The position numbers and the translations under genes were made by a program. Below the pieces are notes generated by a model. The model worked only from the letters and a program-made list of their open reading frames with translations, was not told where the DNA came from and made no database searches. From Olsenella uli DSM 7084 (GTDB taxonomy: Bacteria > Actinomycetota > Coriobacteriia > Coriobacteriales > Atopobiaceae): 64,000 bases of DNA. The stretch is from the NCBI RefSeq assembly GCF_000143845.1, contig NC_014363.1, positions 1,287,186 through 1,351,185 on the forward strand, in the 5' to 3' direction. This document shows, piece by piece, positions 55,372 to 58,662 of the stretch; position 1 is the first letter of the stretch; every line of letters begins with the position of its first letter.

Positions 55372-56049
55372 TCAGAGCGCGCAGGACCAGCGCACGTTCT
55401 CGTTGTCCAGCTCGCCCGCACGGTCAACGACGTCGCTCGCGGCCAGATGCAGGCCCTCCCAGCAGCGGTGCTCGCGCACGATGCTCGCGGGGACGCCCGC
55501 GACGGTGACGCCATCGGGGACGTCATGGACCACCACGGCACCAGCCCCCACCTTGACGTCGTCGCCGACCCTGATGTCGCCCAGGATGACGGCACGGGCA
55601 CCGACGATGACGTCGTTTCCTAGCGTCGGGTGGCGCCTGCCGCCGTGCTTGCCGGTCATGCCCAGCGTCACGCCCTGGTAGACCATGCAGTCGTCCCCGA
55701 TGGTGGCGGTGGAGCCTATCACGACGCCCATGCCGTGATCGATCACGAAGCGCCGTCCGATGGTTGCGGCAGGGTGAATCTCGACCCCAAGGCGTCGTCG
55801 GGAGCGCTGTGAGAGGAAGGTCGCCAGGGCACGGGCGCCGTGGACCCAAAGCCAGTGCTGACGGCGATAGGCCCACACGGCGTGCAGGCCCGTCGCGAAG
55901 AGGACGACATGCAGGCCCGAGTCCGCGCTGGGGTCGCGCTCGAGGACCGCGCGCACGTCCTCCCGGACGCGCCCGAAGAACCCGGCCCTTCCCCTCTGCG
56001 ACGGCACGGCCCCTGCGACGGCGCCCGCGTTGCTCTCGCCCATCTCCAC
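55372..56049 (-). CDS. cysE: Serine O-acetyltransferase
   Basis: 225 residues. Helical N-terminus, then the left-handed beta helix: EIHPAATIGRRFVIDHG with the catalytic His, IGDDCMVYQGVTLG, HPTLGNDVIVGARAVILG and VAGVPASIV. Makes O-acetylserine from serine and acetyl-CoA for CysK. The GTG at 56049 follows GGGGAGGGG; an ATG two codons on is an alternative. It is 81 nt downstream of cysK, one operon. The C-terminal ~25 residues lack the typical CysK-binding Ile end. Confidence 0.92.
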   Translation of the reverse strand: MEMGESNAGAVAGAVPSQRGRAGFFGRVREDVRAVLERDPSADSGLHVVLFATGLHAVWAYRRQHWLWVHGARALATFLSQRSRRRLGVEIHPAATIGRRFVIDHGMGVVIGSTATIGDDCMVYQGVTLGMTGKHGGRRHPTLGNDVIVGARAVILGDIRVGDDVKVGAGAVVVHDVPDGVTVAGVPASIVREHRCWEGLHLAASDVVDRAGELDNENVRWSCAL

Positions 56050-56130: not shown

Positions 56131-57042
56131 CTACAGCCCCATCGACAGGTAGCGCTCGCCCGTGTCCGGAAGGATGGCCACGATGGTCCTGTTCGCAAGG
56201 TCGTCGCGCTGGGCCAAACACCGGGCCGCCGCGACGGCGGCGCCGGAGCTGATGCCAACGAGCAGGCCGAAGTCGTCCGCAAGGCGCTTCTTGGTCGCAA
56301 TGGCATCGTCGGACGCCACGGGTGCGACCTCGTCCACGACGGAGGCGTCGTAGGTCTTCGGAACGAACCCCGCGCCGATGCCCTGGATGCGGTGGGCCCC
56401 GGCGGGCTTCCCGGCCAGGACCTGGCTCTCGGCGGGCTCGACGGCGACGGAGAGGACGGTCGGCTTCTTCTCCTTCAGGAACCTCGCCGCACCCGAGATG
56501 GTGCCGCCGGTGCCGACGCCGGCTACGATGACGTCGACCGAACCCTCGGTGTCGGCCCAGATCTCGGGGCCCGTGGTCTCGTAGTGGGCGCGGGGGTTGG
56601 CGGGGTTCGAGAACTGGCCGGCCACGATGGAGCCGGGCGTGGCGTCACGCAGCTCGCCCGCACGGGCGACGGCACCCCTCATGCCCTCGACGCCTGGCGT
56701 GAGGACGATCTGTGCCCCGTAGGATGCGGCCAGCTTTCGGCGCTCGACCGACATGGTCTCGGGCATGACGAGGATCATCCGATAGCCTCGTGCGGCCGCC
56801 AGCATCGCAAGGCCCACGCCCGTGTTGCCGCTCGTGGGTTCGATGACGGTGCCTCCCGGCTTGAGGCTGCCGTCAGCCTCGGCGGCATCCAGCATGGCCT
56901 TGGCAATGCGATCCTTGATGGAGCCGCCGGGGTTGGTGGCCTCGTACTTCGCGAGTATGCGGGCCTTCCCGTCGACGAGGGCCGAAAGGTCCACGAGCGG
57001 GGTGGCGCCGATGAGCGATTCGATCCTGGCTGCGTATCTCAT
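56131..57042 (-). CDS. cysK: Cysteine synthase A (O-acetylserine sulfhydrylase)
   Basis: 303 residues. The PLP lysine lies in NPGGSIKDR (~36-44) and the substrate loop is EPTSGNTGVGLA (~66-77); GVGTGGTISG binds the phosphate of PLP. Converts O-acetylserine and sulfide to cysteine. ATG at 57042 with GAGGAG upstream. A ~320-nt leader with a strong intrinsic terminator precedes it (57132-57160), so expression is probably attenuated. The cysE gene follows. Confidence 0.95.
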   Translation of the reverse strand: MRYAARIESLIGATPLVDLSALVDGKARILAKYEATNPGGSIKDRIAKAMLDAAEADGSLKPGGTVIEPTSGNTGVGLAMLAAARGYRMILVMPETMSVERRKLAASYGAQIVLTPGVEGMRGAVARAGELRDATPGSIVAGQFSNPANPRAHYETTGPEIWADTEGSVDVIVAGVGTGGTISGAARFLKEKKPTVLSVAVEPAESQVLAGKPAGAHRIQGIGAGFVPKTYDASVVDEVAPVASDDAIATKKRLADDFGLLVGISSGAAVAAARCLAQRDDLANRTIVAILPDTGERYLSMGL

Positions 57043-57131
57043 GGTGGTTCCTCTCCTCGGGATGACTCTCTGCGGATGACATGCGAGTCGTGTGACGATC
57101 GAGGTGCGACGCCAACGCCAAGGCAGCCGAG

Positions 57132-57160
57132 AAAAAACGGGCCGCCTGGTGGCGTCCCGT
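57132..57160 (-). terminator. Intrinsic terminator in the cysK leader (attenuator candidate)
   Basis: Read on the minus strand: acggg-a-cgcc, loop acca, ggcg-g-cccgt, then TTTTTT (57137-57132). A 9-bp GC-rich stem with one mismatch and a six-T tail, 90 nt before the cysK ATG and with no other gene upstream on that strand. Confidence 0.75.
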
Positions 57161-57370
57161 CTGACCATACACATATGAAGCTCCTGGGCTTCCGCCGTGG
57201 GTGCGCCGCGTCAGCGACAGCCACCCCCGCGACTGGTCAAGGGGGACGTCTGGCTCTGGCAACAACACGCGCGCGCGCTCGTCCGAAGCGTCAGCACCCT
57301 TGCGTCCCTCCCCTCGCCACACCATGGAACCCCACGGGCCCCGTGACCTTATCCCCAGTCGTTGGGTAGG

Positions 57371-57400
57371 AACTTAGAGCAGGCAGACGCCTCCTGTCAA
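57371..57400 (-). promoter_or_regulatory. Probable cysK promoter
   Basis: Minus-strand TTGACA (57395-57400) and TAAGTT (57371-57376), 18 nt apart. Transcription from here gives a leader of about 320 nt ending at the cysK start. The rest of 57043-57582 has no gene. Confidence 0.5.
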
Positions 57401-57582: not shown

Positions 57583-58662
57583 ATGCTGAGAATCGGACTG
57601 CTCACGAGCGGCGGCGACTGCCAGGCACTCAACGCGACCATGCGCGCCATCGTCAAGACCGTCCTGCGGAACGCGGGCGAAGGCGTCGGCATCGTCGGCT
57701 TTCTCGACGGCTACCAGGGCCTCATCTACGACCGCTACCTGACGCTCACCCCTGGCGACTTCAGCGGCATCCTCACGCGCGGAGGCACCATCCTGGGCAC
57801 CAGCCGCACGCCCTTCAAGCGCCTCGACATCCCCGAGGAGGACGGCATCGACAAGGTCTCCGCCATGAGGGCGACCTATGGGGCGCACAAGTTGGACTGC
57901 CTCTTCATGCTGGGCGGCAATGGCTCCACGAAGACGGCGAACCGCCTGAGCGAGGAGGGCCTCAACGTCATCGCCCTGCCCAAGACGATCGACAACGACA
58001 CCTGGGGCACCGACATGACCTTCGGCTTCCCCAGCGCCATCGACGTGGCGACCCGCTGCATCGACGACATCCACACCACGGCCAGCTCGCATGGCCGCGT
58101 GTTCGTGATCGAGATCATGGGGCACAAGGTCGGCTGGATACCCCTGCACGCCGGTGTCGCGGGCGGCGCCGACGTCATCCTCATCCCCGAGATCCCCTAC
58201 GACATGGGCAACGTCGTGAGGGCGATCGAGCGCCGGGACCAGGACGGCGGGCGCTTCGCCATCGTCGTCGTGGCCGAGGGGGCCATCTCCAGGGAGGAGG
58301 CGGCCATGAAGAAGAAGGCCTACAAGGCCAAGGTCGCCCAGCGCGTCAAGCCCTCCGTCGCCTATGACATCGCCGAGGAGATCGCCCAGCGCACGGGCCG
58401 CGAGATCCGCGTCACCGTACCCGGCCACACCCAGCGCGGCGGAGCGCCCGACGCTGCGGACCGCATCTTCGCGACGCAGTGCGGCGTCGAGGCTGCGCTC
58501 GGCATGCTCGAGGGCAGCTATGGCTTCATGGTCGCCCAGGTGGGCGGCAGGATGCGCCGCGTGCCCCTGTCCGAGGTCGCCGGCAGGCTCAAGTATGTAG
58601 ACCCCCAGTGCGACCTGGTGCGCGAGGCAAAGATGCTGGGCATCAGCTTCGGTGACGAATAG
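57583..58662 (+). CDS. pfkA: 6-phosphofructokinase (group III type)
   Basis: 359 residues. LLTSGGDCQALNA (7-19) and PKTIDND (133-139) define the family. The nucleotide loop is GGNGSTKTA (111-119): Gly114 at the position that favours ATP over pyrophosphate, Lys134 at the position usually linked to PPi use, and Asn113 where Asp is normal. That mixed signature is known from actinobacterial PFKs that often use ATP. Phosphorylates fructose 6-phosphate in glycolysis. ATG at 57583 with AAGGAG 7 nt upstream. Confidence 0.92.
   Translation: MLRIGLLTSGGDCQALNATMRAIVKTVLRNAGEGVGIVGFLDGYQGLIYDRYLTLTPGDFSGILTRGGTILGTSRTPFKRLDIPEEDGIDKVSAMRATYGAHKLDCLFMLGGNGSTKTANRLSEEGLNVIALPKTIDNDTWGTDMTFGFPSAIDVATRCIDDIHTTASSHGRVFVIEIMGHKVGWIPLHAGVAGGADVILIPEIPYDMGNVVRAIERRDQDGGRFAIVVVAEGAISREEAAMKKKAYKAKVAQRVKPSVAYDIAEEIAQRTGREIRVTVPGHTQRGGAPDAADRIFATQCGVEAALGMLEGSYGFMVAQVGGRMRRVPLSEVAGRLKYVDPQCDLVREAKMLGISFGDE

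What the first reader, a model, noticed from the sequence alone, without database searches (positions are those of the whole stretch)
57043..57400. cysK-cysE leader with an intrinsic terminator: probable attenuation switch
A promoter-like pair lies ~320 nt before the cysK ATG, and a 9-bp stem with six Ts stands 90 nt before it, with no gene to terminate. Position and length fit a T-box or riboswitch, yet I find neither the T-box consensus TGGNACCGCG nor a SAM-I core. It may be a divergent T-box, a peptide-based attenuator or an undescribed cysteine/sulfur-sensing RNA.
Basis: partly seen in the sequence, partly recalled or inferred. Interest (0 to 1): 0.52.

Follow-up and report, generated by a model that had tools for sequence, protein, structure and literature searches.

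The report
Cysteine leader-peptide attenuator before cysK-cysE
Ahead of its cysteine-making genes this mouth bacterium carries a short decoy gene with three cysteine codons in a row and then a transcription stop signal, which together most likely let the genes be read through only when cysteine runs short.

Summary
On the minus strand, between divergent pfk and cysK-cysE, lies a leader of about 320 nt ending in an intrinsic terminator (57160-57132). The codons just after this run can pair with the terminator's 5' arm. Among 105 upstream regions (104 from the same family, Atopobiaceae), 13, in 4 genera, carry a cysteine-rich leader ORF followed by an intrinsic terminator; 20 shuffled sets gave none. 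The peptides differ between genera but keep the Cys cluster. No Rfam family (T-box, SAM) matches. Best reading: ribosome-mediated transcription attenuation by charged tRNA-Cys, as in trp/his leaders. This is a known kind of mechanism. Cys leader peptides of other Actinobacteria were reported without obvious terminators, so a terminator-type version on cysK in Coriobacteriia looks like a new member. Weak points: no expression data; folding at equilibrium favours the O. uli terminator even with a stalled ribosome, so the switch would have to be kinetic; the -10 box is poor. In most relatives without the attenuator an operator-like palindrome stands before cysK instead.

The parts
57395..57400 (-). 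promoter -35 box TTGACA
   Evidence: direct reading; in the best -35/-10 pairs of the leader in the scan; consensus match only
57371..57376 (-). promoter -10 box TAAGTT, 18 nt from the -35 box (weak, 3 of 6)
   Evidence: direct reading
57354..57371 (-). degenerate operator-like element TCCTACCCAACGACTGGG over the presumed start site
   Evidence: same motif class in 58 of 81 leaders without a Cys ORF, 1 of 14 attenuator leaders (this one), 5 of 10 leaderless-type; role inferred
57306..57311 (-). Shine-Dalgarno sequence GGAGGG of the leader ORF, 8 nt before its GTG
   Evidence: direct reading
57211..57297 (-). leader ORF, 28 codons, GTG start: MLTLRTSARACCCQSQTSPLTSRGGGCR
   Evidence: Cys-rich uORF plus terminator in 13 of 105 leaders against 0 in 20 shuffled sets
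57259..57267 (-). control codons TGT TGT TGC (Cys-Cys-Cys); a fourth Cys codon at 57219-57217
57234..57248 (-). antiterminator strand a: CGTCCC 57248-57243 and TGACCA 57239-57234, just after the Cys codons
   Evidence: duplex -34.0 kcal/mol, 1 of 500 shuffles as low
57153..57167 (-). antiterminator strand b: TGGTCA 57167-57162 and GGGACG 57158-57153 (the latter is in the terminator's 5' arm)
57132..57160 (-). intrinsic terminator: 9-pair stem with one mismatch, 4-nt loop, six T
   Evidence: hairpin -17.2, -16.8
56131..57042 (-). cysK, cysteine synthase A
   Evidence: NCBIfam TIGR01139, 406 bits, cut-off 351
55372..56049 (-). cysE, serine O-acetyltransferase
   Evidence: NCBIfam TIGR01172, 219.5 bits, cut-off 210.65

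Best explanation
A cysteine-specific, ribosome-mediated transcription attenuator controls cysK-cysE. RNA polymerase starts near 57364 and a ribosome begins the leader ORF at 57297. If Cys-tRNA(Cys) is scarce the ribosome stalls on the three Cys codons (57267-57259). The next stretch of RNA (57248-57234) then stays free and pairs with 57167-57153, including the terminator's 5' arm, before the 3' arm has been made; the terminator fails and cysK-cysE are transcribed. If Cys-tRNA is plentiful the ribosome runs through that stretch, the terminator at 57160-57132 forms and transcription stops. Shown here: the parts, their recurrence in relatives, the complementarity. Inferred: translation of the ORF, stalling on Cys codons, termination and readthrough in the cell, and the direction of the response.
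For: Leader ORF with Shine-Dalgarno, Cys-Cys-Cys, then terminator, directly before the genes for the last steps of cysteine synthesis. Cys-rich uORF plus terminator in 13 of 105 leaders and 4 genera (g1, g7, g9, g49); 20 dinucleotide-shuffled sets gave mean 0, max 0; Cys-rich uORFs alone 23 of 105 against a shuffled mean of 0.65, max 3. Peptides differ between genera but keep the Cys cluster: MPVRQCIAPCCCTPALPSPCRTDVRSIR (g7), MLKQITCACCCICPQAARLCA (g49), MHATTAMCCQMCCHNAWLSPARRA (g9). The strand after the Cys codons pairs with the terminator's 5' arm beyond shuffles in G000 (1 of 500), three g49 genomes (0 of 500 each), G006 (16 of 500) and G063 (13 of 500). In g49 G095 and G096 the predicted fold changes from antiterminator (ribosome on Cys) to terminator (ribosome at stop). 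A g7 genome scored as lacking it, G064, has a weaker version with three scattered Cys codons.
Against: No expression, term-seq or ribosome-profiling data. In O. uli the terminator is favoured at equilibrium in all three ribosome states (by 9.0, 11.7 and 11.7 kcal/mol), so stalling would have to act kinetically. A ribosome at the O. uli stop codon would lie a few nucleotides downstream of strand a rather than on it. The antiterminator test fails for G061 (428 of 500 shuffles as low) and, in this wiring, for 4 of 5 g9 leaders (n from 334 to 436 of 500; G143 37 of 500). Whole-leader folding is not unusual (z -1.3). The -10 box is poor. 81 of 105 leaders have neither the terminator type nor the leaderless type.
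Confidence: 0.86

Rival explanations
1. The Cys-rich ORF senses Cys-tRNA, but through Rho-dependent termination or translational control as in the mycobacterial polycysteine ORFs, and the hairpin is minor.
For: Mycobacterial and Propionibacterium cys leaders have Cys-rich ORFs without obvious terminators (PMC1262725, passages), and leaderless polycysteine ORFs act as cysteine-responsive attenuators there (title and citing passages only). Ten of 105 leaders here (g9, g14) are of a leaderless-looking type without a terminator.
Against: In O. uli, g7, g49 and five g9 genomes a terminator with a T-run follows the Cys ORF; 2 of 2000 shuffled O. uli leaders have one as strong.
Confidence: 0.08
2. 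A divergent T-box or an undescribed cysteine-sensing riboswitch.
For: Position and length would fit; a terminator is present.
Against: No Rfam match at gathering score in the window or at E below 0.8 in the leader; no conserved aptamer beyond g1 and g7; the Cys codon run is unexplained by it.
Confidence: 0.02
3. The 57364-57132 RNA is a stand-alone small RNA with its own terminator, and cysK has a separate promoter after it.
For: Promoter and terminator bracket about 230 nt; a chance-level Hrs13 match, E 3.2.
Against: Only two 7-of-12 promoter-like pairs after the terminator; the unit stands before cysK in the relatives examined, where only cysK upstream regions were looked at; it encodes a Cys-rich ORF.
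Confidence: 0.03
4. Chance: an unused ORF and an unused hairpin.
For: A Cys-rich uORF arises in about 0.6% of shuffled leaders (0.65 of 105).
Against: Joint occurrence in 13 of 105 leaders against 0 in 20 shuffled sets; alignable terminators in g1 and g7.
Confidence: 0.01

Closest known systems
Classical amino-acid leader-peptide attenuators (trp, his, ilv)
   Same: short ORF rich in codons of the pathway's own amino acid, antiterminator against terminator, biosynthetic genes downstream
   Different: cysteine; cysK-cysE; Coriobacteriia; in O. uli the antiterminator is not favoured at equilibrium
Cys-codon leader peptides before cys operons of Mycobacterium and Propionibacterium acnes and cbs of Bifidobacterium longum (PMC1262725, passages read)
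   Same: Cys codon runs in a short ORF before cysteine genes, Actinobacteria
   Different: those were reported without conserved terminator hairpins and with Cys codons near the stop; here a strong terminator is present and the Cys run is mid-ORF
Leaderless polycysteine ORFs of mycobacteria (Canestrari 2020; not held, known)
   Same: polycysteine ORF, cysteine-responsive attenuation
   Different: O. uli's ORF has a Shine-Dalgarno and about 67 nt before it; a terminator is present. The g9/g14 leaderless-looking type is closer to these
uORFC-8-2 motif before cysS of Rhodobacterales (PMC8632094, passages read)
   Same: tandem Cys codons in a uORF followed by a presumed intrinsic terminator; predicted attenuation
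   Different: Alphaproteobacteria, cysS, one conserved RNA motif; here cysK and unrelated sequences

Membership tests
Leader-peptide transcription attenuator | short ORF with ribosome-binding site in the leader | tested here: met
   57297-57211 with GGAGGG 8 nt upstream
Leader-peptide transcription attenuator | cluster of codons for the end-product amino acid | tested here: met
   TGT TGT TGC; Cys-rich uORFs 23 of 105 leaders against 0.65 in shuffles
Leader-peptide transcription attenuator | intrinsic terminator between the ORF and the first gene | tested here: met
   57160-57132; 2 of 2000 shuffled leaders
Leader-peptide transcription attenuator | mutually exclusive antiterminator placed to respond to the ribosome's position | tested here: inconclusive
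   complementarity significant in O. uli (1 of 500) and switching predicted for g49 G095 and G096; but the O. uli terminator is favoured in all ribosome states at equilibrium
Leader-peptide transcription attenuator | readthrough rises when the charged tRNA is scarce | not testable with these tools
   needs expression data
T-box | T-box covariance model / TGGNACC core | tested here: not met
   no Rfam match at gathering score and none but three unrelated families at E up to 10
SAM riboswitches | Rfam SAM models | tested here: not met
Mycobacterial leaderless polycysteine ORFs | leaderless start of the ORF | tested here: not met
   the ORF starts about 67 nt after the predicted start site with a Shine-Dalgarno; start site not mapped

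The most novel reading that the evidence does not exclude
Within one bacterial family the cysteine synthase gene has been re-wired more than once between a DNA operator and a cysteine attenuator. Terminator-type Cys attenuators appear in the O. uli/g7 lineage and in the g49/g9 lineage. In g9 an extra hairpin may relay the signal (strand 1 in the ORF, hairpin 2:3, then the terminator arm). A leaderless Cys-ORF type combines an operator with a conserved non-terminator hairpin. O. uli keeps a decayed operator over its start site, so it could be a transitional, doubly controlled case.
Probability: 0.4. Interest if true: 0.52.

Novelty: new member of a known kind. Interest (0 to 1): 0.4.

Why it matters
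It gives a concrete, testable cysteine sensor to a class of gut and mouth bacteria with little known RNA regulation. It adds the intrinsic terminator that was not found in the cys leader peptides reported for other Actinobacteria. The family offers a natural series, operator to attenuator, for studying how regulatory mechanisms replace each other.

Tried and rejected
Rfam on the whole window and the leader: nothing. MFE folding of the whole leader: unremarkable, z -1.3. The first dump of upstream regions showed the wrong side for loci on the minus strand; corrected. Rrf2 (PF02082) presence as a discriminator between operator and attenuator genomes: useless, 136 of 140 genomes have a match. TGYTGYTGY across the own genome: 146 matches, fewer than the reversed-pattern control, uninformative. 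Cysteinyl-tRNA synthetase was located, but its leader was not analysed. A named-genome scan for CysK gave few Atopobiaceae and was not used further. The CysK tree is a quick tree with weak support (the careful search was not finished). I considered the in-frame ATG at 57174 (MCMV..., AGGAG upstream) as a longer cysK start or second leader; rejected, because the start at 57042 matches relatives' CysK starts and no stop separates it from cysK. Dropped before the counts: of 118 family genomes with CysK at E 1e-100, 104 upstream regions were analysed plus one genome of another family (G034), 105 in all; G041 had no recognised start and the rest were not fetched; second CysK copies were not analysed. 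The automatic count of 13 leaves out G064, added by eye, so one search uses 14. The antiterminator tests used 12 of the 13, leaving out G062, whose leader ORF and terminator repeat those of G006.

Full report
Where it is. The window lies in a single-contig genome of 2,051,896 bases, the size given for Olsenella uli type strain VPI D76D-27C in the abstract of PMC3035265; I infer that it is this organism. cysK (56131-57042, minus; TIGR01139, 406 bits) is followed by cysE (55372-56049, minus; TIGR01172, 219.5 bits), with a 6-phosphofructokinase gene divergent at 57583-58662. The finding is the minus-strand leader of cysK.

The observation. TTGACA (57400-57395), 18 nt, TAAGTT (57376-57371); terminator ACGGG-A-CGCC-ACCA-GGCG-G-CCCGT (57160-57137) with six T (57137-57132), ending 89 nt before the ATG. 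The simple scanner lists neither, because the stem has a mismatch and the -10 box is poor. Scored by energy, the hairpin (-16.8 kcal/mol) is the only T-run terminator at or below -12 in the window, both strands; at -16 or below, shuffled windows give 0.08 per strand and 2 of 2000 shuffled leaders have one.

Between promoter and terminator is an ORF with a Shine-Dalgarno sequence: GTG at 57297, stop at 57213-57211, peptide MLTLRTSARACCCQSQTSPLTSRGGGCR, with TGT TGT TGC at 57267-57259. Cysteine is the product of the genes downstream.

Relatives. CysK was found at E 1e-100 or better in 118 of 140 genomes of the family. I analysed 105 upstream regions: 104 from this family and one from another. 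An SD-preceded uORF with at least three Cys in six codons occurs in 23 of 105 leaders and 5 genera; followed by a terminator in 13 of 105 and 4 genera (g1, g7, g9, g49). In 20 dinucleotide-shuffled sets the means were 0.65 and 0.0 (maxima 3 and 0). Of the other 19 amino acids, the next best with a terminator is alanine (5 of 105). Examples: g7 MPVRQCIAPCCCTPALPSPCRTDVRSIR; g49 MLKQITCACCCICPQAARLCA; g9 MHATTAMCCQMCCHNAWLSPARRA. One g7 genome scored as lacking the system, G064, has a weaker version (MAEAVFAALRVGRACRICVRSLPLCRQGI before an imperfect terminator). Between g1 and g7 the terminator region aligns and keeps GGGACGC/GCGTCC-type arms, so these two are probably homologous; g49 and g9 are unlike them in sequence. 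A quick CysK tree places O. uli beside a g7 genome (support 86) and g49 with g9 (support 90, open), giving a fewest-changes count of 2 for the terminator type, the 41 rows without either type not counted (weak tree). Where a promoter reaching the scan's threshold is found in attenuator leaders (10 of 14 leaders scanned), it ends 36-57 nt before the uORF, leaving aside a weaker second match in G064 at 114 nt; O. uli's, with its poor -10, ends 73 nt before.

Mechanism. With the terminator's 3' arm not yet made, the O. uli leader pairs CGTCCC (57248-57243) with GGGACG (57158-57153, in the terminator's 5' arm) and TGACCA (57239-57234) with TGGTCA (57167-57162). The duplex of the post-Cys stretch with the 5'-arm region is -34.0 kcal/mol, reached by 1 of 500 shuffles; g49: 0 of 500 in three of three; G006 16 of 500; G063 13 of 500; G061 428 of 500; g9 G140, G144, G146, G149 334 to 436 of 500 and G143 37 of 500. 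For g49 the case is textbook: AGGCTGCCCG right after the Cys codons pairs with CGGGCAGCCT of the terminator, and in G095 and G096 the predicted fold is antiterminator with a ribosome on the Cys codons and terminator with a ribosome at the stop codon; for the third, G098, the same holds, but with the ribosome footprint the terminator forms in both states. In g9 the post-Cys strand instead pairs with the first arm of an extra hairpin before the terminator (against shuffles: G143 0, G146 22, G144 27, G149 55, G140 134 of 500), which suggests a relay; this is tentative.

Against. In full-length O. uli RNA the terminator wins at equilibrium whatever the ribosome does (9.0 to 11.7 kcal/mol), so antitermination must rely on the order of synthesis. 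A ribosome at the stop codon would sit just downstream of strand a. Nothing here shows translation, stalling or termination in cells.

Wider picture. 58 of 81 leaders with neither type carry a palindrome of the form TCCTACTTG-NNNN-(G/C)TAGGA at the promoter (pattern somewhat looser than this; shuffle rate 0.012); of 14 terminator-type leaders only O. uli has one, degenerate (TCCTACCCAACGACTGGG, 57371-57354) and over the presumed start site; of 10 leaderless-looking Cys-ORF leaders, 5 have it. I read it as an operator, perhaps of an Rrf2-type regulator; the regulator is not identified, and Rrf2 genes are nearly universal here (136 of 140). The leaderless-looking type (nine g9 genomes and g14) has a Cys ORF such as MKSLANIFRCCCTCAVPGSAMAHRRTR starting a few bases after the -10 region, and a conserved GGCTCGGGCGTAAAGCC whose first part can pair with the codons after the Cys run (reading output; not tested against shuffles).

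Known relatives. Seliverstov et al. 2005 (PMC1262725, passages) predicted Cys leader peptides before cys operons of Mycobacterium and Propionibacterium acnes and cbs of Bifidobacterium longum, without conserved terminators. Leaderless polycysteine ORFs are reported as cysteine-responsive attenuators in mycobacteria (title and citing passages; paper not held). A uORF with tandem Cys codons and a presumed terminator was predicted before cysS in Rhodobacterales (PMC8632094, passages). Naville and Gautheret 2010 (PMC2965389, passages) note that T-boxes and leader peptides replace each other. Searches for a Coriobacteriia cysteine case found none (open-access library only; listings read, not every paper). 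The kind is known; this is a new member.

Noticed in passing
L002, L006, L008, L010 and other cysK leaders; window 57371-57354 (degenerate): Palindrome TCCTACTTG-NNNN-(G/C)TAGGA at the cysK promoter in 58 of 81 leaders without a Cys ORF and 1 of 14 with the terminator-type attenuator; probably an operator of an unidentified sulfur regulator.
   Followed up: partly
L009, L011, L209-L215, L217 (upstream of cysK): Leaderless-looking Cys ORFs (such as MKSLANIFRCCCTCAVPGSAMAHRRTR) right behind a promoter with an operator-like palindrome, no terminator, and a conserved GGCTCGGGCGTAAAGCC that can pair with codons after the Cys run.
   Followed up: partly
L204-L208 (g9, upstream of cysK): An extra strong hairpin (GGCAGCCC...GGGCTGCC) between the Cys ORF and the terminator, whose first arm can pair with the post-Cys codons: a possible relay version of the attenuator.
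   Followed up: partly
57174 (minus strand): ATG TGT ATG with AGGAG upstream starts an ORF in frame with cysK without a stop, running through the terminator; probably chance.
   Followed up: no
window 1-64000: Only one strong T-run terminator hairpin in 64 kb on both strands: intrinsic terminators seem rare in this region, which makes this one stand out.
   Followed up: partly
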